From the NCBI GenBank assembly GCA_024449915.1, contig JAMZAV010001457.1, positions 62,001 through 126,000 on the forward strand: a stretch of DNA of 64,000 bases, in the 5' to 3' direction. The translations under genes were made by a program, and so were the position numbers. Positions within the stretch are counted from its first letter, which is position 1; each line of letters begins with the position of its first letter. The notes under the pieces were generated by a model, which searched no databases, was not told the DNA's origin, and saw only the letters and a list, made by a program, of their open reading frames with translations. Source of the stretch: Sweltsa coloradensis. Its lineage: Eukaryota; Arthropoda; Insecta; Plecoptera; Chloroperlidae. This document shows, one piece after another, positions 858-64,000 of this stretch.

Positions 858-2990
858 TTGTTTTGGAAAAATCACCCCCCCGTAAAATTTTTTTTCTTTT
901 CACCCCAGAATAAGAAAAATCATTTTTTCCCGTGTCGTTCTTTTGTGTGTGGTAAGGTTTCTTTCGAAAAGTTTTTTCACAAACAAAACAAGATTTTTGC
1001 TTCTTGCCTGTGTGTGTTATCTAGGTGTGGTAGGTTTAGCTAGAAAAAACTAAAAAGGGAAAAAAGCTTCTCTTGTATGGTTCTTTTACTTTTGGTAAAT
1101 CCTGCTCGAAGAAAACATTTTTTCAGTACGAAAAAAAAAGGTTCTCGCCTGTGTGTTTTCTTTTGGGGTGGGTAAGGAGACGCCTAAATTTTTTTTTTCA
1201 TACAGAACAAGACAAGGGCTTCTCGGCTGTGTGTGTTCTCTTGTGTATGGTGAGGGAACTGATCTGAGAAAACTTTTTTTTACATACAGAACAAGAGAAT
1301 TGCTTCTTGTCTATGTGTGTTTTATTGTGCATGGTAAGGTAACTGATGTGAGAAAATTTTTTTTCACATACAAACAAGAGAAGGGTTTTTTCGCTCGTGT
1401 GTGTTCCCCTTGGTTTGGGTAGGTGACTGCTAGAGAAAACTTTTTTTACTACAGAAAAGAGAATGGCTTCTTGCCTGTGTGTGTTCTCTTGTGTGTGGTA
1501 AGGCTACTGTTATCATAAAAAGTTTTTTCACATACAGAACAAGAGGATTGCTTCTTGTCTTGTGTTTTTTTATTGGCTGGTAAGGTAACCGATTGAGAAA
1601 ACTTTTTTTCACATTCAGAACAAGAGAATGGCTTTTCGCTCTTTGTGGTTACCTTTTTTTGGTAAGGTGACTGCTATGAAAAATTTTTTTTTACATCAGA
1701 AAAAGAAAATGGCTTCCGCCCGTGTGTGTTCCTTTGGGGGTAAGGCTATTTTATAAAAAAAAGTTTTTTCACATAAGAAAAGACAATGGCTTTTGTCGTG
1801 TGTGTTACCTTGTTTTGGGAAAGGGGTGACTGCTATGAGAAAACTTTTTTTACATAAAAAACAAGAGAAGGGCTTCTCGCCCGTGTGTGTTCTCTGGAAA
1901 GGGTAAGTGACATTTTTGAGAAAAACTTTTTTTTTTTTGCATAGGGAAAAAGAGAAGGCTTTTGCCGTGTGTATTCTCTGTGGGGTAACGCTACGTTTGA
2001 AGAAAAGCTTTTTTTTAAACAGAACAAAAAAAGCTTCTCCCCTGTATGTGTTTTCTTGTGTGGGAAAGGGGTTTCGGATGAATTAAAATTTTTTTCACAT
2101 ATACACAAGAAAAAAGGGTTCTGCCCTTTATTCTCTTGTGTATGGGGGGAACTGATCTGAGAAACTTTTTTTTTTCATACAGAACAAGAGAATTTCTTTT
2201 TGTCTATGTGTTTTTATTGTCTGGTAAGGAATGATGGAGAAAAATTTTTTTCAATAAGAACAAAAGAAGGGTTTTTGCCCTGTGTGTTACCTTGTGTTTG
2301 GGAAGGGACTGCTATTAGAAAACTTTTTTTACATAAAGAACAAGAGAATGGCTTTTCGCCCGTTGTGTTCTCTGTGTGTGGTAAGGCTACTGTTATCATA
2401 AAAAGTTTTTTTACAATCAAACAAGAGAAGGGTTATTTCCTGTGTGTTTCTCTTGTGTATGGTAAGGGGGAATGTTTTGAAAAAACGTTCTTCACATTTA
2501 GTGCAAGAGAATGGCTTCCCGCCCCGGGGTGTTCTCTGGGGTGGAAAGACCCTTTTTAAAAAAAAAGCTTTTTTACAACAGACAAGAGAAAAAACTTCTG
2601 CCCAATGTATTTTCTTGTGTGTGGGATGGGTTTCTGGGTGAAGAAAATGTTTTTTACCCTACAGAACAGAGAAAGGCTTCTCGCCCGTTTGTATCTCTTG
2701 TTTGGGAAAGGTATTCGTCTGAGAAAATTTTTTTACATACAGAACAAGAGAATGGCTTCTGTCCGGTGGTTCTCATGTTCTGGTAAGGCTTGGGTATCAA
2801 AAAACTTTTTTACACATAAATCACAAATATTCGCTTCCCCCACTAGTTTTTTTTTTGGGGCAAGAAGGGTAGATCTATGAGATACCTCTGTGCATAAAGG
2901 GCCCACATCACAGGGATAGATTTCTTTTTTGTGTGCGACCTGATGTGAACGATTAACATGCCTCGTGGAAACTTGCCCCACAGCATCACA
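858..2990 (-). pseudogene. Degenerate C2H2 zinc-finger array, about 24 fingers
   Basis: Read on the minus strand, an 84-base unit repeats about 24 times. It encodes the classical finger pattern: Cys-x2-Cys-x-Lys-Ser-Phe, five residues, Leu-x2-His-x3-His, then the HTGEKPF linker. The best piece is at about 2214-2420 (TGEKPFSCSLCKKSF). The most upstream piece, at 2733-2981, has divergent, partly Cys/His-substituted fingers and probably marks the N-terminal side. Proteins of this type bind DNA in the nucleus through tandem fingers. No frame stays open for more than about 90 codons, and most breaks fall in A or T runs of 5-10 bases within each unit. It is therefore either a decayed gene or a real array with uncorrected homopolymer errors. 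The similar units suggest recent tandem expansion. It lies on the same strand as the repeat-exon gene at 23.6-29.3 kb, but a link is speculation. The family call is firm; the broken status is less so. Confidence 0.78.
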
Positions 2991-4540
2991 AAAAATATCT
3001 AGTATCTTTTCAGCATCTCTTGTGCGTCAGTAGGAGATGAGGTCACTAAAAAGTCACATCACAAACTTACAACTAAAATCTTAACGTGGACGTGGGTTTC
3101 CCGCGTCTTGCAAGACAGGGGGGACGTAAGCTCTCCTCCCGGCTCCACCCAGGATGGGGGGGCAAGTGCGTTCGCGGGGAAAAATTTTGACCGGGGTTTT
3201 TAAGGTTTCTTGAATTTAAAAGTTAGTTCTTCGAAAAGTCCTTTTTTGATGCTTAAACTTTGCCTGGTAGACGGTTTTACCGGGTGACAACGGCAATTTA
3301 TTGAAAAAAAATACACTATGTTTTACTTTATTTTAGGCCCCAACCCAAAATGATGGCCACACATTAAGTTTGACCACCCAAAATTTTAAAGTTAGGGTAT
3401 AAATACTATTGAAAAAGGTTTACATAATGGCCACTGCCACTTTATCAATTTGATCATTTTTTAAAAGTAGTCCTGCTTACCCTAGGCCATTCACATAGAA
3501 CATTACAAAGGAAATTCAACAAAATTCACATTACTTGTAGTAGGCTTTTTACCCAAATTGCAAAAAACGGGGAAGGTGGCCTAAAAGAATCCTTTGGAAA
3601 AAAAGGGCTGTAAAATAAAAATGGAACTTACGGAGGCTAGTTTTTTTTTTCAAAGCTTTCTCCATTATATTAAAAGGGTTTTTGGAGACCCCCAATTACA
3701 ATGCACGTCAAAGACTAATCAGAAGTTTTTTTTTCGTTTTCTTTTTATGTTAGGCCGTTGGAAAAAATCAACACCCTACAACTTCGAAATTCAACAACAC
3801 AAAAAACATCAAAATTATTTTGAAAAAAGTGATGGGAACCGAAGAAAAATATACTAACTTCCACATTTCGAATGCGTTATTGCGGACAATTAACAATGGT
3901 ATGAAGCCTAACAAGTTGGCATTATTTTTTTTATTTTTTATAAAAAGTCATGAAATTTTTATCTTTTGTTACTCTCAGAAATTTTATCAGACATTGAAAA
4001 GTACAGATTGCTTCAAATTATTTTGTGTTTCAGTACTTATAGGCCTAGCGGAAGAGATCCAGAAAAAGAAATTGCAACAGAAATTGTTTTGTTTTTGTAG
4101 TGGATTAAGAACCACATAACACAATTTTTTAAACTTTAACCAAGGTAATTTGATTATTGAAATCAACAGTATTTCCAAGCTTAAATTCGAGTGAGCGTAA
4201 TTGCACATCCATGTGATTTTTTTTAAATTTCAGATGTAGCAAGATGAAATTGCGCTTGTTAATATAAAAAACAAAATGGACCTAACCACACTACTTTTTA
4301 ATTTATCGCGTTTTGAAATACGCTGGATAATGCTATCTAAGGCATTGTAACTAAGCAAAAACCTATACTTTCAATCGGATAACACTGTTTAACTACTATG
4401 AAAAAACATCGGATATTAATAAATTTAGTACCAAAATGTAGGTAACTTCATGACTTACAATATTACGCTTGAAAAATCTTGCTTTACCGTGTCCATTTCC
4501 GAGATAATGGCGTTTGAATTTTGATGTAACGCATTTAATT
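2991..4540. other. No gene recognised
   Basis: A GC-richer patch at about 3090-3180 and AT-rich sequence after it. The open frames at 3594-4119 are Phe/Lys-rich translations of A/T runs and match no domain I know. Confidence 0.45.
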
Positions 4541-19643: not shown

Positions 19644-20339
19644 AGGTCGGATTCCTATGCGACGACTGAAACTACTATAGCCGCGCGGCTTCAGCCACGC
19701 GATCAGAGCCACGCGATCAGAGTCGCGCGATCAGAGCCGCGCGATCAGAGCCGCGCGATCAGAGCCGCGCGATCCGAGTCGCGCGATCAGAGCCGCGCGA
19801 TCAGAGCCGCTTGTTCAAATTCCAATCCCGCGACTCTTGTTTCAGTCGCCACGTGATTAGCATGGAGGAAACACTGTTGGTAGCGTATTTTCTCGAAGAA
19901 GAGGAATATGAATAATTGATACTAAATATGCTTAATCAATTAAAAAGAAGTGACCCTAAACCAATGTACTTGGCGAGGAAGGAGGAGGGATTTCAAAGTA
20001 TTCTTTTACAGAGACATCTTTTGGACGATGCATTAGTGTTTAGGAAGTTTTTCCGCTTGAATAGTGACCAGTTCAATTACGTTTTTTCACTCAGCTTTAC
20101 GAAAACAACAATAGTTCTATTATTTTATATAGAAAAACACTTCCGATCGCGTGGCGGCTGCGGCTAGACTGCTCCATGAGCAGTCGAGTCGTCCGGCTCA
20201 AGCGTGTCATTTAGAGCCGCATCAGTCGCGCGGCTACAGACGCGTCATAGGAACGGGTTCCATTCATTTACCTATAAAGCAGTGTGACTCACAGCCGCGC
20301 GTCTACAGTCGTATCAGCCGTCGCATAGGAATCCGACCT
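19644..20339 (+). mobile_element. PIF/Harbinger element, non-autonomous
   Basis: The 21-base terminal inverted repeats start AGGTCGGATTCCTATGC and are flanked by TAA at 19,641-19,643 and 20,340-20,342. The 3-bp TWA duplication is the Harbinger signature. Inside, a plus-strand frame at about 19,862-20,100 resembles the N-terminal part of HARBI1-type transposases (RKEEGFQSILLQRHLL, then FRKFFRLNSDQF). Human HARBI1 is a domesticated relative. The catalytic DDE region is missing, so this is a deletion derivative. A 14-base minisatellite sits just inside the left end. Confidence 0.8.
19695..19808. repeat. 14-bp minisatellite, about 8 copies
   Basis: Unit CGCGCGATCAGAGC, eight near-identical copies in tandem inside the left end of the Harbinger element. 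Related CGCGCGGCT/AGCCGC words recur near its right end. Confidence 0.85.
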
Positions 20340-50497: not shown

Positions 50498-51323
50498 AAA
50501 AGGCAGTCATTTCTCAATCCCCAACAAGCCACCTTCGAACCAAGACAGTCCAATAACGAATCACAGCGAATCCTCTCATTTCAAGCGACAACTAACCCAT
50601 CTCAAAAATCGCTAATCCAGGAAATTGAGAGTGACTTATTTGATGCACCAGCCCACTACGCACTGATACACTGCGTAGCTAAAGACCTAAGGCTATCAGC
50701 GGGAATTGCAGCGAAATTCAGATCCAAGTTTGGAGGAATAGGTTTTCTCAAGTCACAGAATGTTAGTGTCGGTGGCGTGGCTTACCTTCACGCACAAGAT
50801 AGATTAATCTGTAACCTAATAACTAAAGACTTGTCCAAACAAAAACCAACATACGCGGCGCTAAACGATTCGCTGCGGAGTCTCCGTTCATTCTGTGAAT
50901 TCTACAACATTAATCACTTGGCCATGCCTAGACTAGGCAGTGGCCTAGACGGCCTACAATGGAGTGAAGTGAGAAGATTAATCTACAATAACTTCTCAAG
51001 TTCTCGCATTCAGATATTAATCTGCTATAGGCCTATAAAAAATAAAACTAAAAAAACTAATGGCACTGAGACATCTGAAAGCCGACTAGGATCAGAGGCT
51101 CCAGTAACCTCTACACAGGCCGCCAAGCTTTTGTCGGATTCCAATGTATTTGACAGCCCAGCCCAGTCCAATGGTCCGGGTAAAGTCCAGGCCACAACAG
51201 GGTTGGAGATAGCCGGCTGCCCGTCCCTGCCCGAGGGTCCTGGTAACGCTGAATTATCTGCGGACGCCAAGGACACACCCGTGTTTGAGACCGCCAGCTG
51301 CCCGTCCCTGCCCGATGGTCCTG
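50498..51323 (+). CDS. TARG1/OARD1-like macrodomain protein, 5' and central part
   Basis: The frame is open from 50,498; no ATG lies before the domain, so the start is probably in an upstream exon. The macrodomain spans about 50,630-51,035: ESDLFDAPAHYALIHC, a Gly-rich AGIAAKFRSKFGG loop, LITKD, KPTYAALNDSL, MPRLGSGLDGLQW and a final ILICY strand. In human TARG1, Lys84 and Asp125 cleave ADP-ribose from acidic residues. The matching Lys (codon 50,825-50,827) and Asp (50,948-50,950) are both present, so hydrolase activity is plausible. A linker and 27-residue repeats (CPSLPEGPGNAELSADA) follow. The frame is cut at 51,323 by a 12.3-kb insertion and resumes at 63,597. TARG1-like macrodomains also occur in multi-copy invertebrate elements, so this may be an element-borne gene; the domain call is firm. 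Confidence 0.82.
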
Positions 51324-51354
51324 CCCTACTGGAAAAAAATATAGAAACATATTG

Positions 51355-52440
51355 GGCTCTATAGGTATATGTATATCTATGTATGTATGTATATGATTCT
51401 ATATGTGTTATCTCTATAGGTCTTTAAATATACCTATAGGAATCTATAGGGTGTTCTATAGGGTTTTAAATGTACCTATAGGAATCTATAGGGTTTTGCT
51501 TTAGGTTTCATATAGTGTATTTGTCACTTTTCATATAGAATCCTATACCTTGTATGAACATATATTATTCTATAGGTCACAACGAAAAAGTGAAAGCCAT
51601 ATGTATGTATAGGATTTAGAAGGTTATATATTGAGAAAGCTATAGGTAACAATAGGTATCTATGCACATATACATGTATAAGTGTTTATAGGACATTATA
51701 GGACCCTATAGTTATCGATAGGGGTTTACTCGTTTGTATATTAATTATATGTGTATGTCTATATAATATTATGTAGGTACGTATAGAAGGGAAATAAACA
51801 GGTTTCTATACATTTTTATATGCGGTTATATGTACATATGTGTCAATACACAATTCTATAGGTAAGTATACGTTCTTATATTAATTTATATGTATGTCTT
51901 TATAATATTAGTAGGTACCAAAGGGTCCTACAGGTTATATACATTTTTATAGGTTCAGGCTATAGGTTTCATATAGTGTATTTGTCACTTTTCATATAGA
52001 ATCCTATACTTTATGAATATATATATATTATTCTATAGGTATCTATAGGCCACAATGAAAATGAGAAAGCCATATATGTACCTATAGGATTATATACGGC
52101 TGTATATTGCGAAAGCTATATGTATCAAAAGGTATCTATGCACACATACATGTATAAGTGTTTTTTACGACATTACAGGACCCTGTTATCGATAGGGTTT
52201 TACGTTTGTATATTAATTTATATGTGTATGTCTATATAATATTATGTAGGTACGTATAGAAGGGATAAAACAGGTTTCTATACATTTTTATATGCGGTTA
52301 TATGTATATGTTATTATAATATTCTTAAGGTGCCTATAGAAGGGTCCTACAGTTTTCTATACATTTTATATGCAGTTATATGTATATGTTATTTAATATT
52401 TTTAAGGTACTTATAGGTACAAGCCCTACAGGTGAAAAAA
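51355..52440. repeat. Left subterminal CTATAGG-rich array
   Basis: The word CTATAGG (with ATATAGG and CCTATAG variants) recurs at intervals of about 10-40 bases. A longer segment (TTTCATATAGTGTATTTGTC) is duplicated at about 51,507 and 51,967, and another (TCTATATAATATTATGTAGG) at about 51,758 and 52,230. Such repeats near CACTA ends bind the element's own proteins in plants; the same role here is inference. Confidence 0.75.
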
Positions 52441-52469
52441 AGTTAAATAACAATGGGTAACATGGTTAC

Positions 52470-53130
52470 TAAGGCTTCTAGAATGAATCTGAAATAGTTT
52501 TGTTTGAGATTAGTCACAATAATTAATCAGGTAAAAGTAGTTTGCTCTCTCAAGGAATTTTAATTTCCATTGAATCTGAAATAAATAATCGTATTATTGA
52601 TCAGGAGTGAATCAGGATGCTCACTTTTGGCCTGTAGAATGAATCTGTAACAGTTTTATTTGAGATTAGTCACAATGGTTTACTCTCCTCAAGGCATGTT
52701 GATTTGCATTCAATCTGAAATAAATAATCGTATTATTAATTTAGGATGTTCACTCTTACTAAGGCCTGTAGAATGAATCTGGAACAGTTTTGAATGAAAA
52801 TAGTCACAATTAATCAGGTAATATGGTTTGCTCTCCTCATGCGTGATGTTAATTTGCATTCAATCTGAAATAAATAATCGTATTATTTAACAGGAGTGAA
52901 TCAGGAAGCAAACTTTTGGCCTGTAGAATGAATCTGTAACAGTTTTGTTTGAGATTAGTCACAAATCACAAATTAATGGTAATACTAGTAGTTTTTTGCT
53001 CTCCTCATGCGTGGTGTTAATTTAAATTCAATCTGAAATAAAACAATTTGTACTAATAATCAGTATGTTCACTCTTCCTTAGGCCTGTATAATGAATCTG
53101 AAAGTGAAAGTAAAATTAGATTTTTCATAA
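52470..53130. repeat. Tandem repeat of about 150 bp, 4-5 copies
   Basis: Landmarks GAATGAATCTG, GAGATTAGTCACAA, CTCTCCTCA and CAATCTGAAATAAATAATCG recur in order at about 52,482, 52,637, 52,770, 52,926 and 53,091, with decreasing similarity at the right end. Confidence 0.75.
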
Positions 53131-53910
53131 TCCGATCATTAGTGTACCGGTTTTTTACTTTCCTCAAGGCGTGTTTTCATCTAAAAACAACCAAGGGACT
53201 TTTTTGCAATCCTGTAACAATGTTCTGCTTTTTGTCAATAAACCTAAAAAACAGAATAATGAGTTCAATTAGCGACAATCACGGGAAATGTGGATCGCCC
53301 TTTCGATCATGCGATTATTTTTCGAATCTTGAAATATTGTTTTGCATGGTGTAGTACAACCTACAAGCCCTGCCTGCCTGCCCTAGCCCTGTTTGCGTTG
53401 AAAGCCAGTTTTTTACTGAGCCATCGCCTCGCCACGCATCTCTCGAGTTTGCACCTGCACGGCACCGCTTCGGAAAAGCGTCTCCCCGCCCCTGCTAGTC
53501 CTCAACTACCCCCTAGCCATCAGCCAACCTTTGTATTTGGGCTGGGTAGCCTTGAGCGGTAATTTATTCAACGGTTTTGATATTTTCAAATAACCCTTCA
53601 CAACAGAGATTTTCCGTAAGTTCAGTAAAACTGTGTGTGTTAGGGGTGGGGGTGGGGGGGGGGGGGAATTCAAATTTCTTCCTCCTTGTTGCACCTCTCC
53701 CGACAGATGTGGAAATAAATAAATTACGTCCGTGACACCTGCTAGTATTTATTCATTTTAACTGGTCTAGACAAACAAATGGCTATTAATTAATGGAAGT
53801 TTTGGGGGAATTTCCAAATCTATGCGCTTTATTATGTCAAAATTTTGGATACAAACAAGGAAATATTATGTCTCCTAAAAATATATTATTTCGTTAAAAA
53901 AAAAATTGTT
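53131..53910. other. No gene; G-run
   Basis: Poly-G near 53,645-53,668. The 70-90-codon frames have no recognisable domain. Confidence 0.4.
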
Positions 53911-53911
53911 A

Positions 53912-54093
53912 TTTAGAGTCTACCCAGTACCCACTCAGTCATATAACTGATTTTCAGTGGGGGACAGTAAACCAAAGCATTGAATAACCAGTAAAGGGAT
54001 TGGATACACAAAGACCAAAGCATCCAAGCCAACCCTGTAAGCCCCGACGCAATCGACGAAAGTGAGCGATAACCAACCAAAGATCGATATTTT
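53912..54093 (-). repeat. SINE family 1, 3' tail with small internal duplication
   Basis: Minus-strand tail (GTAGACTCTAAATA, ATCAGTTATATGACTGAGTG, TCGATTGCGTCGGGGC) with about 35 extra bases between CCAAAGCAT and CCAAGCC. The HINE-like element at 54,094 begins directly at its edge. Confidence 0.68.
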
Positions 54094-54861
54094 TGGATGA
54101 GCGTAGCGAGCGAAGCGAAGATTCCATTTAACTACATGCAGAAAAAATCCGGAATGTTTTTTTTTTGTATTTTGTGTGTTTGTTAACACGATTCGACCTA
54201 AACCCAAAACTCCAATTGCGATGAAAATTTGTGGAGGCCTTTTAAATCTCTGAACTTAGAACTGCCAAAGTTTTATGAAAATCGAAAATTTTACGATTTT
54301 TTTCGATTTAAAAAATATTTCTTCGGCTTATAACACCTACATGCTTTACCGATTGTAATGATTTTTTCACAGAACCTTTATTTCATGAATTTATATATTC
54401 GTGCGAAATTTAAGCGTAATCGAAAAATTATTCTCAAGAAAATCGCAATTTTACGATTTTTTAAATATGTTTTAAATTTATCGACTTATAAACTTAGGCC
54501 TACATGCTTTATCCGATTCAAATGATTTTTCACAGAACCTTATTTTATGAATTTTTATATTCGTGTGAAATTTGAGCGTTAATCGAAAATTATTTCTTTA
54601 TGAAAATCGCAATTTTACGATTTTTTTATAATTTTTTAAATCTCTTCGACTTTATAACACCCACTACATGCTTAATCCGATTGTAATGATTTTTTTCACA
54701 GAACGTTAATTTTATGAATTAAATAATAGTGTGAAAATTTTAGCGTAATCGAAAAATTATTTCTTATAAAAATCTCAATTTTATGCTTTTTCCGTTTTTT
54801 TTAAAAAAATTACGCTCATCCAACAACGCGCCTGAAAAAGCGCGTGCGAAGCTTTTCCTAA
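54094..54861 (+). mobile_element. HINE-like element, full length
   Basis: 5' end GGATGAGCGTAGCGAGCG. Body with three internal tandem units of about 160 bases, each with TTATAACACC, TACATGCTTTA, GATTTTTTCACAGAAC and TATATTCGTG. 3' subterminal TACGCTCATCC is the exact inverse of the 5' end. A hairpin ACGCGC/GCGCGT with 8-base loop follows, then TTTTCCTAA. Subterminal inverted repeats plus a 3' hairpin without terminal inverted repeats are the marks of Helentron-associated elements, which are moved by a rolling-circle Rep/helicase encoded elsewhere. Confidence 0.72.
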
Positions 54862-55227
54862 TAATATGAAATAAAGTAATCAGTGGTATCCCACATAAAA
54901 AAAAATCAGACAAACCTTACACAAATAAAAGCAATGAGAAACTAACAGAAATGCCAAGCTTTTGTACCCTTCACATTTTCGCAAATCTTAATACGTAAAT
55001 TCACTTTGTCCTGTGCATCCTTGCAAAGCGTACAAAAATTTTATTTGCAACTATTTTTTAAAATGGAAAAGTTTGTGCAAATTTATTTTGACAAGCTTTG
55101 CAAGGATGCAAAAGGGCAAAGTGAATTTATGTATTAAGATGCGAAAGTAGGAGGGTACATAAGCTTGGCATTTTTTTTACATCTCATTACTTTTTCAAAA
55201 ATTTCCCTTACATAAATAAATTTTTTA
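54862..55227. repeat. 366-bp palindrome joining two HINE-like elements
   Basis: The arms (54,880-55,040 and 55,060-55,215) share AATGCCAAGCTT, GTACCC, TAAATTCACTTTG and GCATCCTTGCAAAGC in inverted order. With the HINE on each side the whole 54,094-55,813 is one inverted duplication. Confidence 0.7.
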
Positions 55228-55813
55228 CTAGGGAGCTTCGCAAAAAACTTTTCAGGCGCGTTGTTGGATGAGCGTAATTGGTGCATTTAGATGCCAATTG
55301 ATATCAGATTTTCTGTTGTTCTGTGAAAAAATCATTACTAAGTCGAAGAAATTTTTTAAAAAACGAAAAAAATCGTAATTTAAAGAAAGAAAAAAATCGT
55401 TAAATTGAGATTTTCATGAGAAATACTATTTCAATTGCGCTTAATTTCACACGAATATATTAATTCATAAAATTAAGGTTCTGTGAAAAAATCATTACAA
55501 TCGGATAAAGCATTTAGGTGTTATAAGTAGAAGAATCTTTTTAAAATCGAAAACAAATCGTAAAATTGCGATTTTCAAGAGAATTAATTTTTCGGTTGCG
55601 CTCAAAAACGTAGCAGTTCTTAGTTCAGAGATTTCGAAGGCCTCCAGAAAATTTCATTTCACTTGGAGTATCGGTTTAGCCGGAATCATGTTAACAAACC
55701 AAACCCAAAAAATACAAACAGGAAAAAAAAACTAAAAAGAAAGAAAAAAAACTTTTCGGATTTTTCTCCAGTGTAGTAGAATGGAATCTTCGCTTCGCTC
55801 GCTACGCTTATCC
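55228..55813 (-). mobile_element. HINE-like element, mirror copy
   Basis: 3' end CTAGGGAGCTTCGC at 55,228 with degraded hairpin, subterminal GGATGAGCGTAAT, and 5' end GCTTATCC at 55,813. It has fewer internal units than its mirror at 54.1 kb. It is otherwise the same subfamily. Confidence 0.68.
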
Positions 55814-55920
55814 AAAAATACAATAATTTTATCAAAGTCGATTCAATGATATGGTATTCCCAAATTTAAAACAATAGAATTTAAAAATATCTAGTGGTCC
55901 AAAGACTTGTTTTTTGTAAG

Positions 55921-56476
55921 CTAGGAAAACGTTAAAGTCCCGTCGCGTTGATGGATGAGCTTTTTTGTAAGTTTTTAGTTTGCGTGGGATCTATTAACTT
56001 ATCAAGTGCCTTTTGAACGCATTGTTGGTGATTGTTGTTAAGTTTCTATTGTTACTTGAAAATTTGTTATTATAAACCTAAAAAAACTCATATTAAAACC
56101 TTTATTCTATGGAGTCTGGCTATCTTTTTCAATTTTTTCTTCCAAAAAGCAATATATCACCAATACCTTAATGTCCATGTGAAATATGAACGTTGTGCAC
56201 CACCCGTTTGGTCAGAATCGGCCCAAATGTCACGAAAATATCGCACAAAAAATCGTAAAAGTACGATATTCATAAGAAATATTTCTTCGATTGTACCCAA
56301 AAACGTGGCAAGTCTAAGTTCAGAGATTTCGAAGGTCCCCTCCAATTTTCATCAAGATCACATTTGCCGTTTGCCCGGTAGAGATCGAACAGACAGACAG
56401 AAAATCAAGCACACAAAAAAAAACGCGCTACATTTTTTGGGGGTTGGTGAAATTGAAGTCTTCGCTACGCTCATCC
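55921..56476 (-). mobile_element. HINE-like element, subfamily 2
   Basis: Minus-strand 3' end CTAGGAAAACGTTAAAGTCC, subterminal GGATGAGC, 5' end GCTACGCTCATCC at 56,476. Collinear with 8,883-9,464. The 150-codon frame at 56,032-56,484 is a translation of this repeat. Confidence 0.68.
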
Positions 56477-56791
56477 AACAATGAAGGTGATCATTCTCAG
56501 TTCAGTTCAGTTTGAGTGCAATAAGTAACATTTACTTTGCTTGTTATACAGTACCGGGTATATTTCCCCTTAAAAGTAGAATGAACATAATTCCAGAGGA
56601 GATAACGCTTTTACGCCATTATTTGGCAAAATTGAAAGAGGGGGGGCTTAGCTGTCATTCAGCTGATTTTCGCAGCAAGGAGCACGAAATACTTGACGAG
56701 AGACGGGTTCGGGAACCCAGTTCTTTGATAGGTCATCAAGGCCTCTATGGCCCATTGCGTCTTGTTGATATAAACATTTTGATGAGTGAGG

Positions 56792-58254
56792 CTATTTAGT
56801 GATAATCGGATCAGTTGACATAGCTGTGAGGGCGTCAACAAACCCGTCTATTATGGTGAAAACTGAGGCTTCCGGTGTATTTGAGGAGGCTGTTAGTTCA
56901 GGTCTGGGTTGGGCCAGGCGGCGAGCAGCTGGGGGGCGATTTAAGTTATTAACAACGTCTGCAAATGAATGTTGAGGGTTGAGTGGAATAACTGGTGGCA
57001 GGTTACTGTGGTCAGTGGACTTTTGTAGGCTCGACGAGAGGACCGAGTGCCGTGGGGAGTACGAGCAGCCAGGGCGCGGAGGTAGGTGGCGGCATTTGAG
57101 ATAGGACGCAGGATGGTCTTGTTACAATTGAAGCACTTGGCGGGTTCGGATGGAGACTTTGGGCAGTCTTTAGATGGGTGATAGTCGGCGCACTTGAAAC
57201 ACACCGGAACAACGTGCAGAAGTGTGAAGAGTGTCCAAACTGCTGGCAGTTAAAGCACTGCCGTGGGCCTTTCGGCCCACGATAGCGCTCCACGGTAACT
57301 CGGTGGTGGCACACGCGTTCCACCAGGTGAAGGGGATTACCAGGGGCGTTAACTTGCGTAGTGATGACGAACAGAGGCATTGGCTGTCTTTCTCCTCCTC
57401 CTTCTTCAGCTCGGTGTGTGAGTTGACGTACGTCCAAGACCGAGACGCCCTGGCTCTGAAAGGGCGGAGAGTATGGTAGCTGTTTCCACTGTGGCCGAAA
57501 TGCCACGGAGAACAAGCTTCTTAGTTCTCTGTTCCGTCGTTGGGAATGTGTGAAAACATAATTTCTTTTTCCCTTTTAAGTGTGTGATTAGGTCATCATA
57601 GGTTTTCCGGGAGTCCGGCTTTATTTGAAAGTGTCACTTGTTGATGATATTGTTACTTTTCCATTGGTAGATGCATTAATTATGCGAATGAGCGAATTAT
57701 ACGTCGGGACACCGTAAACTGTAATGGGGGGTGCTCGGTTCCTTGGGTTTAGGGAGGCGGTCACTGTTGCTTTCACGTATTGAGTTGTGGGTTGAGACAT
57801 CGTCGCGGAAGTATGCTGTGTTTTGGAGGAGGAGGCAGACGAAGACATCGAGTGAGCATCTCCTGCAGACTGGTCGTGATCCATTGACATGTCTCGACCT
57901 GGTTTTAATATATCAACGTTAAGTTCAGGGTAGATGGCTAACCTGAGAGAGAGGCTCGTAGCGATTTGACAAAGCTATGGGCTGGGAAGTGTTATGACTT
58001 AGCTTTGATGAAGAAGCAGATGAAGTTGATGGCTGTGAATTGCCGTCGGCGTTTGGGGCCGCCTTGAACCTCTTGTTTAAGAAACTTGGTTTATAACGAA
58101 AATCAGTGTCTCCTGGGGAGCAGAATCGTGGGGACCGTTTACTCAGCGGCAATTTGGTCCATTTGTCATTGTTTTTTATTGGTGGCTGGGTGTTGCTGTC
58201 CAACAGGGACTGTATCAGTTTCGAAGGAATCATCTTAGGTGGGTTTGTTGACAT
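56792..58254 (-). pseudogene. LINE ORF1 (Gag-like, zinc knuckles), frameshifted
   Basis: Minus-strand pieces form one protein: an N-terminal Ser/Pro/Asn-rich part from MSTNPPKMIPSKLIQ (58,254); a second block with TVYGVPTYNSLIRII (about 57,700); LVLRGISATVETAT (about 57,520); LTHRAEEGGGERQPMPLF (about 57,400); RYRGPKGPRQCFNCQQFGH (about 57,270); then CFKCADYHPSKDCP and CFNCNK. Together these give an RNA-binding region of the PRE_C2HC type followed by CCHC zinc knuckles. This layout is known from ORF1 of Jockey/I-group non-LTR retrotransposons, which packages the element RNA. The stop is near 56,792. At least three frame changes break it. ORF2 (endonuclease and reverse transcriptase) should follow but only about 300 bases remain before a HINE-like element, so the copy is 3'-deleted, unlike the usual 5' truncation. 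Confidence 0.75.
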
Positions 58255-59300
58255 TGCGTGGCTGGTGTAGGCACTGTACTATGGTAGCACTAGTATTAGG
58301 TGTGCGAGTTCGACTTTGGACTGCGCGTATACGGGACCATGACGTCTAGTGAGTGCGCAAGCACCAAGTTCGAGTTATGATTATGTGTACAGATGTTGGC
58401 ATGAAATATGCAACACTAATAAACCACTGGTTGTAGGGGGGTTTCTTCGCAGAAAGTTCAGTTTCTGGGTTGGATTTTCCTATTTTGATAATAATATGTA
58501 ACTGAATATACCCTGAAGGGGTAGACACAGGGCCTATAGCAGAGCCCTGTCTGTAGAGTCCACCTCTTCCCCGGGTGGGGGAGGGGAAGCCTTGTTCACT
58601 GGGAAATGTATGAAAATACAATATCCTACAAGATATTTAGTGCCTACGGCACAGACTTAAAAAACCTTATAGTACGTTTACGTATGCACTGAATGCACAC
58701 AACCTTACTTGTATGGTTGGCTGTCGCCTGCCTTGACAAGGTTATGCGATGCTGATAGCACAGTACACAGTAACTAACAGAACACGTCCGACTAGGTCCG
58801 TGGTCTAGATGGAACTGTGATCATTCTCAAGTAACTATAGTTACTTGTTGATTATATTCTTGTAAAAGGCTGTTATTTAAACCTTTATTTGGAAGCTTCC
58901 AGCAAACTTTTTCAACTTTCAAAAGGCACCTTATCACTGAAAAATATGAACGATTGTATAGCCCCACCCGTTTGGGCAGAACCGCTGGCCGATTGAAACT
59001 GACGAATTTGACAGTAGCAGCAAAGTGGTAGGAGCAGCAGTAGTAGTAGCAGTAGTAACATAATTAAAGTGATTTTGAGCATGTTTCAAGCCATTTTTTT
59101 CACCAAGAAGGAATGCTCGTACCTCAACCAAATTTGGCATGTGTTGTCAAGTACTTAAATCCCCTCGATTTTGATAGTTTTCAAGTTCACATCACGTTTC
59201 ATGACGGCTGGATAACACCTCGAAATCACTTTAACTCCGCTTGCTGTATAAGGTGCATGAGTGTGTAGCGCACCACGGCTTGGCTGCGGCGCCCTAACGG
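58255..59300. other. No gene; diverged HINE subfamily 2 traces
   Basis: 58,835-58,980 resembles part of the subfamily 2 HINE body (TTACTTGTTGATTAT, AACCTTTATTT, GCCCCACCCGTTTGGGCAGAA). The rest, possibly LINE 5' region, shows nothing I can name. A GTAGTAGCAG simple repeat lies near 59,035. Confidence 0.4.
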
Positions 59301-59304
59301 GCAC

Positions 59305-59540
59305 CTAGATGGACGGTGCGAACACCCGCGAATCAACGCCAGAATCAACAAGGCCGATTCAGAACAACTTTGAATTTATTATGTGCCTCGTTGCTAGGAC
59401 GTCTTTAAAGTCACCGTTTACAAACTCAACTGATGGACTGAAGTCCAAATCAAAAGTTAAAAAACTACTGACTATGGCGGGAATTGAACCCTGGACCTTC
59501 TGCATTGGAAGCAGATACGCTAACCAAAGACCAACGAGCC
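59305..59540 (-). repeat. SINE family 1, head and body
   Basis: The minus-strand head (about 59,535-59,480) keeps the loop TTCCAAT between TCTGC and GCAGA and a B box GGTTCAATTCC. Linker and body (CAAAGTTGTTCTGAATCGG) match the 22.86-kb copy. The tail is missing. Confidence 0.75.
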
Positions 59541-59643
59541 ACACAAAATTAGTTAATAACTATAACTATGTAATATATATCTGCATATTATTTACGATTA
59601 GAGATGACGCCTCCGATTCAAAAATATTAAAATCGGAAATTAT

Positions 59644-60268
59644 TGGATGAGCGTAACGAGCGAAGCGAAGATTCCATTTAACTACACTGGAGAAAAAAAT
59701 CCGGAATGTTTTTCTTTTTTTCCTGTTAATATTATTGTGTGTTTGTTAACACGATTCCGGCTAAACCGATACTCCAATTGCGATGGAATTTTATGGTGGC
59801 CTTCGAAATCTCTGAACTTAGAACTGCCACGTTTTTTGAGCGCAATCGAAAAATAATTTCTTATGAAAATCGCAATTTTACTATTTTTTTTTCGATTTTT
59901 AAAAAAATTCTTCGACTTATAACACTAACATGCTTTATCCGATTGTAATGATTTTTTCACGGAATCTTTATTTTATGAATTTATATATTCGTGTGAAATT
60001 TGAGCGCAATCGAAAATTATTTCTCATGAGTCGCAATTTTTATGATTTTTTTTCGTTTTTTTTTAATTTAAATCGACTTATAACACCTACATGATTTATT
60101 TGATTGTAACGATTTTTTCACAGAACATTATATTATGATTTAATATATTCGTGTGAATTTTGAGCGTAGTCAAAAAATTATTTCTTATAATAATCGCAAT
60201 TTTTACGCTTTTTTCGTTTTACGCTCATCCAGCAACGCGCCTGAAAAAGCGTTTGCGAAGCTTCCTAG
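59644..60268 (+). mobile_element. HINE-like element, full length
   Basis: GGATGAGCGTAACGAGCG start, two to three internal units, TACGCTCATCC subterminal inverse, hairpin-like ACGCGCC...AGCGTTTGCG, then TTCCTAG/T. Same subfamily as 54.1 kb. Confidence 0.7.
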
Positions 60269-60454
60269 TTAATTTCAAACTACATAATATCTATGCTGAT
60301 GGTGATCTCATTAAAATAGTTTATAGATTAGTCACTACGGTTTAGCGAATGTAACTTGGTACGCCCGTAGGGTCTTGTGTTAGCCTACTTTGTAGACCAA
60401 CACTTCATTATACAAAACTTGTTTTCATCCATAATAATAATTTCATACCATAAT

Positions 60455-61242
60455 TGGATGAGCGTAGCGAGCGTAGCGAGCGAAGCGAAGATTCCATTTC
60501 ACTACACTGGAGAAAAAAATCCTGAATGTTTTTTTTTCTTTCTTTCTTTCTTTCTTTCTTTTTTTTTTGTATTTTTGTCTGTCTGTTAACACGATTCCGG
60601 CTAAACCGATACTCCGATTGCGATGAAATTTTATGGATGCCTTTCGAAATCTCTGAACTAAGAACTCCCACCTTTTTGAGCGCAATCGAAAAATTTTTTC
60701 TCATGAAAATCGCAATTTTACGATTTTTTTTTTTCGATTTTTTAAAGATTTCTTCGGCTTAAACTCCTACATGCTTTATCCGATTGTAATGATATTTTTA
60801 CAGAATCTTAATTTTATGAATTGATATATTTGTGTGAAATTTGAGCGGAATCAAAAAATTATTTCTCATGATAATCGCAATTTTACGTTTTTTTTTTTAA
60901 ATTTCTTAGACTTATAACACCTACATCTTTATCCGATTTTAATGATTTTTTTCACAGAACCTTAATTTTAAAAATTAATATATTCTGTAAAATTTGTGCG
61001 CAATCGAATAATTATTTTTTTATGAAAATTTCAACATTACGATTTTTTTCCTTTTCTTAAATTACAATTAATTTAAAAAAATTAAGTTAATTTTTTTATT
61101 AATTTGATTTAATTTAAAAAAAAATTTTTCAACAAAGTTCTGATTTTTTCACAGAACAACCGAAAATCCGCATAACACATGGCAGCTCAATGCACCAATT
61201 ACGCTCATCCAACAACGCGGCGGGACTTAAGCGTTTCCCTAG
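60455..61242 (+). mobile_element. HINE-like element, full length
   Basis: Start GGATGAGCGTAGCGAGCGTA, (CTTT)n run at about 60,537-60,562, three internal units, TACGCTCATCC, hairpin AACGC...GCGTT-like, then TTCCCTAG/T. The 3' tip (CGGCGGGACTTAAGCG) is that of subfamily 2, while the body is subfamily 1, so the end may have been exchanged. Confidence 0.7.
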
Positions 61243-61259
61243 TTTTATGTAGATCTACG

Positions 61260-63380
61260 AAAAAATAAATTTCCTATACTTACAGGAAACTATATTCTCC
61301 GATAAATCATTATTCAAAAAGATACCTACTAAAACAAAATATACATATTGCTATACCTACTGAAACATATTATTCCTGAAATTGTTACAGGGACCTATAG
61401 TCTCGTTTATTTTATTATACCTATACTTGAACTTATAGGTTCCTCAAACAACAGGAACATACAGGAGTCTGTTATATCATATTTATAGATGACTACTAAA
61501 AACATACAGGTTCTTGATTCTTACTGGAACCTATAGCCTCGTATATATAATTATACATATAGATACCTACTGAAACATATAGGTTTCATGGTAGGTACAT
61601 ACAGGAACCTATAATCTCGGATATATAATTATGCATATAATACCTCTGGAACATACAGGTTCCTTATTCTACAGGGAACCCATAGGCCTCGTATATATTA
61701 TTATACATATAGATGCCTACTTAAACATATAGGTTCTTGATTTTACAGGAAACCTATAGTCTCAGGGATATATAATTATACTATAGAAAAAAACCTACTG
61801 TAAACAAAACAGTTTCCTCAAAGCATACAGGAACCTATAGGCTCGTATTTATCATTTACATATAGATACCTACTGGAACATATAGGTTTCCTTATAATTT
61901 CCCGGAACCTATAGCTCTGATAAATTTTTTACGTATAGAAACCTACTTTAAACATATAGGTTCTTGATTCTTACGGAAACCCAGGCTCGTATTTATCATT
62001 AAAAACATATATTACCTACTGAAACATACAGGTTCCCTTATAATTTCAGGAACCTATAGCCTCTGATAAATTATTTTACGTATAGAAAACCCACTGAAAA
62101 ATATAGGTTCCTTATTCTTAAGGAACCTATAGTCTCTTAAATATGATTATGCATATAATACCTCGGAAACATATGGTTCATGGTAGTACATACAGGAACC
62201 TATGTCTCGTATATATAATTATGCTATAAATACCTACTGGAACATACAGGTTCCTTATTCGTACAAGAACCTATAGTCCCCGTATATATAATTATACATA
62301 TAGATTTCCCCACTAAACCATATAGGTTCTTAATTCCCTTTCAGGAACCTAATTAAGTCTTGTATATATAAATTATACAATAGATACCTACTGTAACATA
62401 CGGTTTCTCATGCTACAGGAACCATAGGCTCTATTTATCATTTATACGTATAGAAACTTACTAAAACATATAGATTCCTTATTCTTACAGGAACCTATAG
62501 CCTCAGATAAATTATTACACGTATAGAAACCTACTGAAACATATAGGTTCCTTATTATTACAGGAACCTATAGTCTCGTATACCTACTGGTAAATACAGG
62601 TTCCTTATTCTTACAAGAACCTATAGATTCCCCATAAATATTATATGTTAAAAAAACCTACTGAAACATAAGGTTTTCCCTTTCTCTTACAGGAACCTTA
62701 TAGTCTCCGATAAATTATTATACGCGCATAGAAACCGAAATGAAACATATAGGTTCCTTATTATTACAAGAACCTATAGTCTCGTATATATAATTATGCA
62801 TATAGATCCTACTGGGAACATACAGGTTCCTCATGCATACATGAACCTATAGGCTCGTATTTATCATTATACGTATAGAAACCTACTAAAACATATAGAT
62901 TCCTTATTCTTACAGGAACCTAAAGCTTCCGATAAATTATTATACGTATAGAAACCTACTAAAACTATAGATTCCTTTTCTTACAGGAACCTTTAGCCTC
63001 AGATAAATTATTATTCGTATAGAAACCTACTGAAACTTATAGTTTCCTTATTCATACAGGAACCCATAGCCTCAGAATAAATTATTATACGTATAGAAAC
63101 CTACTGAAACTTATAGATTCCTTAATCTTTTCAGGAACCTATAGCCTCAGATAAAATTATTTTACGTATAGAACCTACTGAACTTATAGATTCCTTATTC
63201 TTACTGGAACCTACAGCTTCCGATAATTTTATAAGTATAGAAACCTACTGAAAAATATCGAGTCTTTATTCCTACAGGAGCCTATAAATTCCAACAAATT
63301 ATTATACGTCTAGAAACCTACTGAAACATATAGGTCTAACAGGAACCTATAGAATCATATTGAATTTTATTGTGTTCCGT
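61260..63380. repeat. Right subterminal tandem array of CACTA-like element
   Basis: About 25-30 copies of a unit of 70-80 bases: CATATAGGTTCCTTATTCTT, ACAGGAACCTATAG, CTCGTATATATAATTATACA, TATAGATACCTACTGAAA. Each unit contains the inverted pair AGGTTCCT/AGGAACCT, so single strands can form repeated hairpins. The longer right array and shorter left array share the CCTATAG word. Confidence 0.82.
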
Positions 63381-63596
63381 AGGATTTTTTTCACCTAGCA
63401 TTTCAGTGTCTTATGTTTTTCCTTTTCAGTCCTATTAATACTATACCCCAGGAAAAATATAACCCTGTATTTTTTATAAGTTACAAATTACACCTATAGG
63501 ATTCCATTCATCATATACACACCTATGCAAAACCCACAGGGAAAACATAAAATTCTATAGGGTGTCTAAGGTTTTCTATAGTTTTTTCCAGTAGGG

Positions 63597-64000
63597 TGGT
63601 AACGCTGAAGTATCGGCAGACGCCAAGGACACACCCGTGTCTGAGACCGCCAGCTGCCCGTCCCTGCCCATGGGTCCTGGTATTGCTGAACTAATATCGG
63701 ACGCCCAGGACACACCTATGTTGGAGACTGCCAGCTGCCCGTCCCTGCCCGAGGGTCCTGGTAACGCAGAACTATCGACGATCGCCCTGGCCACACTGGT
63801 ATCGGCGACCGCCGGCTGCCCATCCGGTCCCGAGGTGTCGGAGACTGCCTGCTGCTTGTCCATGCCCGAGGGTCCTGGGAGCACTGAATTATTGACGGAC
63901 GCCTTGGCCATACCGGTGTCGGAGACTGCCGGTTGCCAGTCCCTGTTAGGGGCTCCGGGTAACGAAGATCTATCGACGGACGCCCAGGCCGCACCGGCAT
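63597..64000 (+). CDS. Continuation of macrodomain protein: 27-residue repeats
   Basis: Continues in frame from 51,323 once the CACTA-like insertion and one TG are removed. It is open to the window end and encodes about five repeats of 27 residues: GNAELSADAQDTPV, then SETASCPSLPEGP, with substitutions. Composition is Ser/Pro/Ala/Asp-rich with one Cys per repeat; no known fold. The repeats look like a long flexible tail on the macrodomain. The minus-strand frame over the same bases is an antisense shadow. The 3' end lies outside the window. Confidence 0.72.

What the first reader, a model, noticed from the sequence alone, without database searches (positions are those of the whole stretch)
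50498..64000. Macrodomain ORF split in frame by a 12.3-kb transposon
Seen: host repeat GGTCCTGGTAACG is interrupted as ...GGTCCTG / CCCTACTGG ... CCAGTAGGG / TGGTAACG..., a 2-bp TG duplication, and both sides read the same 27-residue repeat in one frame. Known: the domain matches TARG1-type macrodomains with catalytic Lys and Asp kept. Inference: the insertion is recent relative to the ORF, because repeats on both sides are still open. If the element excises precisely, or an empty allele exists, the full protein would be restored.
Basis: partly seen in the sequence, partly recalled or inferred. Interest (0 to 1): 0.82.

Follow-up and report, generated by a model that had tools for sequence, protein, structure and literature searches.

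The report
Jumping gene carrying an ADP-ribose eraser
The split gene is not a host gene but a decayed copy of a LINE jumping gene whose first protein carries a domain like the human ADP-ribose-removing enzyme TARG1, with its catalytic residues kept; we did not find such a domain described in LINEs, and the break is simply another transposon that landed in this dead copy.

Summary
The junctions are as described: a 12,273-bp insert (51,324-63,596) with 24-bp inverted ends and a TG duplication interrupts an 81-bp (27-residue) repeat in frame. The ORF is not a host gene. It is ORF1 of a multi-copy LINE: copies 98-99% identical run into endonuclease and reverse transcriptase, and one has an SGNH esterase domain upstream. 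Two copies (C4003, C142) carry the uninterrupted repeat. The window copy starts at 50,506, has a second insertion and lacks most of its reverse transcriptase, so losing the insert would restore no protein. The surprise is the LINE: a TARG1-type macrodomain in ORF1. All 140 scored of 726 candidates match; the 30 best keep Lys84 and Asp125, and dN/dS is low. ORF1 modules have been exchanged between families. Six paper searches pairing the domain with retrotransposons found no report. I propose that it removes host ADP-ribose during retrotransposition; activity is untested. The inserted transposon shows no transposase and stays unclassified.

The parts
50506..51323 (+). 5' half of the truncated LINE copy: ORF1 from just before the macrodomain to the start of the repeat array
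   Evidence: 98.8% to C4003 (L010) and 98.0% to C142 (L012); homology to both begins at 50,506
50600..51022 (+). TARG1/OARD1-type macrodomain
   Evidence: phmmer to 2lgr_A, query residues 35-175, E 2.6e-28
50825..50827 (+). codon of the Lys equivalent to TARG1 Lys84
   Evidence: alignment with human TARG1; K79 of the first row of A1
50948..50950 (+). codon of the Asp equivalent to TARG1 Asp125
   Evidence: alignment with human TARG1; D120 of the first row of A1
51243..51323 (+). 81-bp (27-residue) repeat unit left of the insert
   Evidence: identical to L010 6708-6788 (C4003)
51322..51323 (+). left copy of the TG target-site duplication
   Evidence: paralogs read GGTCCTGGTAACG
51324..63596 (.). 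TIR DNA transposon, 12,273 bp, no transposase recognised
   Evidence: TIR and TG duplication; frames listed, two of them scanned with Pfam
51324..51347 (+). left 24-bp TIR
   Evidence: 23 of 24 identical to the reverse complement of the right end
63573..63596 (-). right 24-bp TIR
61484..63333 (.). subterminal arrays of a 73-bp unit rich in CCTATAG
   Evidence: Tandem Repeats Finder; counts
57015..57575 (-). gag-like frame with PRE_C2HC and a weak zinc knuckle, remnant of another retroelement inside the insert
   Evidence: Pfam PRE_C2HC E 5.6e-07, 30 bits
63597..63598 (+). right copy of the TG target-site duplication
63597..64000 (+). rest of the LINE ORF1 repeat array, running on past the window into ORF2
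   Evidence: 97.7% to C4003 over 63,597-65,226 in extended coordinates; endonuclease frame L009 2171-3025

Best explanation
The interrupted ORF is ORF1 of a LINE lineage (endonuclease plus reverse transcriptase in ORF2) that has a TARG1-type macrodomain built into ORF1, between an SGNH esterase domain and a repeat tail. Shown: architecture, copy number, conservation of the catalytic residues, purifying selection, unequal domain relationships between LINE families. Inferred: the macrodomain is an active ADP-ribosyl hydrolase that strips ADP-ribose put by host PARPs on the element's RNP, on target DNA or on repair proteins around target-primed reverse transcription, as viral macrodomains do against PARPs (recalled). 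The window copy is dead: 5'-truncated, hit by a TIR transposon with a TG duplication and by another retroelement fragment.
For: Paralogs. 140 of 140 scored places (726 candidates) match at E 1.7e-23 or better; 110 of the 140 rows have no stop inside the match, by my count of the listing. Of the 30 best, fetched as loci, 27 have SGNH upstream and 19 endonuclease downstream on the same strand within about 1.5 kb (three of the query domains come from these same loci). The 1038-aa frame of L030 hits human TARG1 (E 2.5e-35) and, weakly, the LINE ORF1 esterase 4c1b (E 0.0094); L045 likewise (1.7e-33, 0.0091). Pfam: Lipase_GDSL_2 in L030, L037 and L012, endonuclease, RVT_1. Profile of 7 LINE macrodomains: OARD1 E 5.3e-46, next class 8.1e-09. 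Lys84 and Asp125 equivalents in 30 of 30 rows. dN/dS 0.13-0.18 in the five divergent pairs with finite dS. PARP1 is found with nuclear L1 ORF2p complexes and less so with endonuclease or RT mutants (PMC5821459, passages).
Against: No activity, expression or transposition was shown. Macro scores lie below Pfam's cut-off (14.7-19.8 against 22 bits); Lipase_GDSL_2 also falls short (31.7 at best against 32.9) and is not listed for L045. The 30 rows were gathered by similarity to the window's domain and many are near-identical (25 different rows of 31 with human). Most between-family dS values are saturated; close pairs give 0.19-0.44 on few changes. The PARP link is borrowed from human L1, and ZAP/PARP13, which restricts L1, acts mainly through its zinc fingers with a PARP domain called likely inactive (PMC4441479, passages). 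The 110 lower-scoring places were not inspected.
Confidence: 0.45

Rival explanations
1. Same LINE, but the macrodomain is a reader, not an eraser: it binds ADP-ribose at nicked or PARP-marked chromatin and guides the RNP to target sites.
For: Macrodomains are ADP-ribose binders in general (abstract of PMC5087735 in the listing); PARP1 sits in nuclear L1 complexes (PMC5821459, passages).
Against: A reader does not need both catalytic residues, yet Lys and Asp are kept in 30 of 30 fetched copies.
Confidence: 0.3
2. Same LINE, but macrodomain and esterase act on O-acetyl-ADP-ribose or a related small molecule, a metabolic rather than an anti-PARP role.
For: Human TARG1 is also named O-acetyl-ADP-ribose deacetylase 1 and the neighbouring SGNH domain is an esterase relative.
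Against: Nothing in the sequences points to a small-molecule substrate; two SGNH classes that hardly align occur with one macrodomain type.
Confidence: 0.12
3. The left and right flanks come from two LINE copies joined by an assembly error, each with its own transposon end.
For: The left unit is identical to C4003, the first right unit only 91% to C4003 and C142, and the flank alignments overlap by 83 bp in both paralogs, 81 plus the 2-bp duplication, so the window array has one unit more.
Against: Matching TIRs and a TG duplication in register with the empty sites; the units differ between copies in any case.
Confidence: 0.07
4. The ORF is a host macrodomain gene cut by the transposon.
For: Open frames on both sides and strong similarity to TARG1.
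Against: Paralogs at 98-99% with endonuclease and reverse transcriptase downstream and esterase upstream; homology starts abruptly at 50,506 as in 5'-truncated LINEs.
Confidence: 0.02

Closest known systems
Type IV LINE ORF1 (esterase, in CR1 subgroup 7 with zinc finger/leucine zipper; also L2 subgroup 9); ZfL2-1 esterase, PDB 4c1a/4c1b
   Same: SGNH/GDSL esterase domain in ORF1, endonuclease and RT in ORF2; 4c1b is the LINE esterase matched weakly by L030 and L045
   Different: A TARG1-type macrodomain and a repeat tail follow the esterase. A word search of both papers' main texts found no macrodomain: 'macro' 0 times in PMC4120745, once, as 'macromolecular' in a reference, in PMC3905857.
TARG1 / OARD1 / C6orf130
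   Same: Nearest macrodomain by sequence; Lys84 and Asp125 kept
   Different: Human TARG1 chains in the PDB are 146-160 aa; here it is one module of a retrotransposon protein of about 1000 aa (L030)
Viral macrodomains that counter host PARPs (coronavirus, alphavirus; recalled)
   Same: Proposed task: removing host ADP-ribosylation from a mobile genome's machinery
   Different: Analogy, not homology; not compared here
TIR DNA transposons with 2-bp target duplications
   Same: 24-bp TIRs and TG duplication
   Different: Superfamily unknown: no transposase seen, and other genomic copies could not be searched

Membership tests
LINE (APE type) | Endonuclease and reverse transcriptase in ORF2 downstream of ORF1 | tested here: met
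   Exo_endo_phos 29 bits (cut-off 24.5) in L009, RVT_1 E 6.2e-27 in L010, 9.9e-31 in P0001
LINE (APE type) | Many dispersed copies, some 5'-truncated | tested here: met
   140 scored matches of 726 candidates; window copy starts at 50,506
LINE (APE type) | Target-site duplication and 3' tail | not tested
   homology of the window copy stops at extended 67,679 in the RT region; complete ends of other copies were not analysed
LINE (APE type) | Named clade (CR1, L2, Jockey ...) | tested here: inconclusive
   P0001: 2379 matches of 7989 scored, best 55%; none of the 120 listed bears a clade name
Type IV LINE ORF1 | SGNH/GDSL esterase domain | tested here: met
   Lipase_GDSL_2 E 2.7e-07 in L037 (31.7 bits, cut-off 32.9), 4c1b E 0.0094 for L030; upstream in 27 of 30 loci
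TARG1-type macrodomain | Sequence nearest to TARG1 among solved macrodomains | tested here: met
   OARD1 E 5.3e-46, next class 8.1e-09
TARG1-type macrodomain | Catalytic Lys84 and Asp125 | tested here: met
   30 of 30 LINE rows; residue roles from PMC9411070 (passages)
TARG1-type macrodomain | ADP-ribosyl hydrolase activity | not testable with these tools
   needs purified protein
TIR DNA transposon (the insert) | Inverted termini and target-site duplication | tested here: met
   24-bp TIR, TG
TIR DNA transposon (the insert) | Own transposase | tested here: inconclusive
   longest stop-free frames 187 and 150 aa; these two scanned with Pfam, one is a gag remnant; shorter frames not scanned
TIR DNA transposon (the insert) | Other copies with the same termini | tested here: inconclusive
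   none in 308,354 other held, partly overlapping bases apart from the element's own right end; whole-genome search did not complete

The most novel reading that the evidence does not exclude
A LINE lineage has made a TARG1-type hydrolase a standing part of its ORF1 protein, shuffles ORF1 modules around it between families, and uses it to erase host ADP-ribosylation during integration or against PARP-based defence: a retrotransposon counterpart of viral macrodomains.
Probability: 0.37. Interest if true: 0.86.

Novelty: new variant of a known kind. Interest (0 to 1): 0.72.

Why it matters
LINE ORF1 proteins are known to carry RNA-binding, zinc-knuckle, PHD and esterase modules (PMC4120745, passages), but I found no record of an ADP-ribose eraser. 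If active, it would tie animal retrotransposition directly to ADP-ribosylation, give a clean point mutant to test whether PARP-type modification limits or guides LINE integration, and show the same answer to PARPs arising in retrotransposons and in viruses.

Tried and rejected
Host gene split by a transposon: rejected. Precise excision restoring a protein: rejected for this copy. Structure prediction of the macrodomain from one sequence: mean pLDDT 39, so no fold search was run. Homologous proteins for ORF1: 0 of 1475 candidates and 0 of 2944 at E 0.001, whereas ORF2 gave 2379 of 7989 scored: the database holds LINE relatives, best 55%, but no macrodomain ORF1 was reached; length and word limits of that tool may explain part of this. 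Viral contigs: 1 of 95 pattern stretches, 24% identity (L055), not followed. Prokaryote contigs: 0 of 44. A host TARG1 gene for comparison and other copies of the transposon could not be sought because the genome search did not complete. The tree of 30 macrodomains with human TARG1 cannot root the LINE group: human and L053 are long branches that meet. The organism and the LINE clade were not identified.

Papers: ten searches in an open library without most subscription journals and without preprints. Six paired the domain with retrotransposons or transposable elements; of the 5 papers they listed (2, 1, 0, 0, 1, 1), none is about a macrodomain in a LINE by title and abstract start, and I opened none of them. 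The other four were on ORF1 types, PARP and TARG1 residues. Read only as passages: PMC4120745, PMC3905857, PMC9411070, PMC5821459, PMC4441479.
Full report
What was checked. The window is part of contig C1457 of an unnamed 1.45-Gb genome in 16,871 contigs. The ends are 24-bp inverted repeats with one mismatch; beyond that the two ends share almost nothing. The stop-to-stop ORFs 50,498-51,364 and 63,595-end read the same 27-residue repeat. The macrodomain is a clear TARG1 relative (2lgr_A, E 2.6e-28), although Pfam's Macro model scores it below its cut-off (15.6 against 22 bits).

What the ORF is. The repeat word GGTCCTGGTAACG occurs 20 times in the genome, against 3 for the pattern read backwards. 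Around some of these places lie near-copies of the ORF. C4003 is 99% and C142 96% identical in protein over the parts matched, and C4003 matches the window flanks in DNA at 98.8% (50,506-51,323), 97.7% (63,597-65,226) and 99.2% (66,951-67,679), in coordinates extended past the window end with locus L009. After the repeats the sequence runs into an endonuclease frame (Exo_endo_phos in L009) and a reverse transcriptase (RVT_1 in L010). Upstream, C142 has an SGNH/GDSL domain (Lipase_GDSL_2 E 5.6e-06). The ORF is therefore ORF1 of a LINE. Homology to both paralogs starts at 50,506, and the 1.5 kb upstream of that point in C142 is not in the window apart from a 40-bp repeat, so the window copy is 5'-truncated. 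Its ORF2 is broken by a 1.7-kb insertion at 65,227-66,950 that overlaps an antisense reverse-transcriptase frame, and homology stops at 67,679 in the reverse transcriptase region and does not resume in the 4.2 kb held beyond. No protein would be restored if the 12.3-kb insert left.

Empty site. C4003 and C142 carry GGTCCTGGTAACG without an insert at the equivalent repeats, which fits insertion with duplication of TG. The arrays differ: the flank alignments overlap by 83 bp in both paralogs, one 81-bp unit plus the 2-bp duplication. The left unit is identical to C4003, while the first right unit is 91% to C4003 and to C142. Array variation between LINE copies is the simplest reading; an assembly join of two copies is not excluded. 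No second individual was available.

The LINE lineage. A genome search with the ORF scored 140 of 726 candidates; all 140 match, at E 1.7e-23 or better. By my count of the listing 30 of the 140 rows contain in-frame stops, and one copy (C142) appears as two rows. The 30 best became loci L024-L053. On the same strand and within about 1.5 kb, 27 of 30 have an SGNH domain upstream and 19 of 30 an endonuclease downstream; L024 (the window copy) and L027 show neither in that range. Long open frames exist: 1038 aa in L030, at least 1125 aa in L037 (it runs off the locus), and 1055 aa in L045, where ORF1 and endonuclease share one frame. L030 and L045 match human TARG1 (E 2.5e-35, 1.7e-33) and, weakly, the crystallised LINE ORF1 esterase 4c1b (E 0.0094, 0.0091); Pfam lists the esterase in L030, L037 and L012, below its cut-off, and not in L045. 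The 110 lower-scoring places were not inspected.

Is the macrodomain active? The residues of the TARG1 catalytic dyad, Lys84 and Asp125 (PMC9411070, passages), are Lys and Asp in 30 of 30 LINE rows, though many rows are near-identical (25 different of 31 with human). Among 13 representatives of the 30, most between-family dS values are saturated. The five divergent pairs with a finite dS (0.89-2.18) give dN/dS 0.13-0.18; four very close pairs give 0.19-0.44 on few changes. This is purifying selection on a sequence that is catalytically complete on paper. No biochemical test was possible.

Modules that move. L031 and L032 share 73-74% of macrodomain residues with L033 and L037, but the endonucleases of L031 and L033 share only 43% (L033 partial and damaged), and the SGNH domains of L031 and L037 do not align. 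L031's SGNH and endonuclease are nearest to L045 (43%, 59%), whose macrodomain is only 54% identical. Against a simple transfer of the macrodomain alone: L030 has the SGNH class of L037 and L012 but an endonuclease nearer to L045 (62%) and L031 (57%) than to the window family (49%). So modules of ORF1 have been exchanged between families, and it is open whether the macrodomain, the SGNH domain or both moved. The macrodomain tree groups L031/L032 with L033-L037, L039 and L040 at moderate support (82/93).

How it may work. In human cells PARP1 is found with nuclear L1 ORF2p complexes, less so with endonuclease or RT mutants (PMC5821459, passages). ZAP/PARP13 restricts L1, but its zinc fingers suffice and its own PARP domain is called likely inactive (PMC4441479, passages). 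The nick made in target-primed reverse transcription is the kind of lesion that activates PARP (recalled). I therefore propose that the ORF1 macrodomain removes ADP-ribose from ORF proteins, target DNA or repair factors; a reader role is the main rival. ORF2 may be reached by a -1 frameshift: in 10 of 16 copies examined ORF2 opens in the -1 frame of an ORF1-like frame, and in the 15 copies other than L045 no Met lies between the opening of the ORF2 frame and the endonuclease. Of the 10, six (L030, L031, L042, L046, L049, L052) have a slippery heptamer in phase in the overlap; in L009 and L010 of the window family CCCAAAC is out of phase, and L012 and L047 have none. Such heptamers are common in A/T-rich DNA, no chance level was computed, and related ORF2 proteins from other sources are given with a Met before the endonuclease (P0002, P0004, P0005, P0007, P0008), so this is only a lead.

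The insert. The 12,273 bp contain no stop-free frame longer than 187 aa. That frame is a gag-like remnant with PRE_C2HC (E 5.6e-07); only it and one other frame of the insert were scanned. Both ends hold CCTATAG-rich subterminal repeats, and nine stretches of the interior match repeats elsewhere in the window, the eight longest matches at 76-92% identity. It is most likely a non-autonomous TIR element with nested insertions; its superfamily is open, because the genome-wide search for its ends did not complete.

Novelty. Six searches of the open library that paired the domain with retrotransposons or transposable elements listed no paper on a macrodomain in a LINE ORF1, judged by title and abstract start. 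In the survey of 448 Jockey-superfamily elements the word start 'macro' does not occur in the main text (PMC4120745); in the esterase paper its single hit is 'macromolecular' in a reference (PMC3905857). Protein searches with ORF1 found no relative (0 of 1475; 0 of 2944), though ORF2 found 2379 of 7989 scored. Repbase and subscription papers were not searched, so a previous mention is possible. I rate it a new variant of a known kind: an esterase-type LINE ORF1 with an added, catalytically conserved TARG1 macrodomain.

Noticed in passing
L030 (reverse strand) 3153-3282, L042 2439-2508, L049 2454-2523 and others: ORF2 opens in the -1 frame overlapping ORF1 by 70-130 nt without a Met before the endonuclease; 6 of 10 such copies have an in-phase slippery heptamer, a hint of -1 frameshifting. 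The window family has none in phase.
   Followed up: partly
L045 265-3429 (-): A copy in which ORF1 (SGNH, macrodomain) and the endonuclease lie in one 1055-aa frame.
   Followed up: no
L031, L032 against L030, L033, L037, L045: Mosaic relationships of SGNH, macrodomain and endonuclease point to exchange of ORF1 modules between LINE families; two SGNH classes (SDSMF and SDSHGR types).
   Followed up: partly
L009 3228-4951 (beyond the window, extended 65,227-66,950): A second retroelement fragment with an antisense reverse transcriptase frame, bordered by a TGTAT repeat, interrupts ORF2 of the same LINE copy.
   Followed up: partly
window 57015-58278 (-): Neighbouring short frames, one with PRE_C2HC and a weak zinc knuckle (57,015-57,575); the rest (to 58,278) were not scanned but look like the same broken gag.
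   Followed up: no
window 1186-2788: About 20 degenerate copies of an 81-84-bp unit; frames there read like decayed C2H2 zinc fingers to my eye, not tested.
   Followed up: no
window 19693-19810: Tandem array of a 14-bp G+C-rich unit, 8.4 copies, 93% matches.
   Followed up: no
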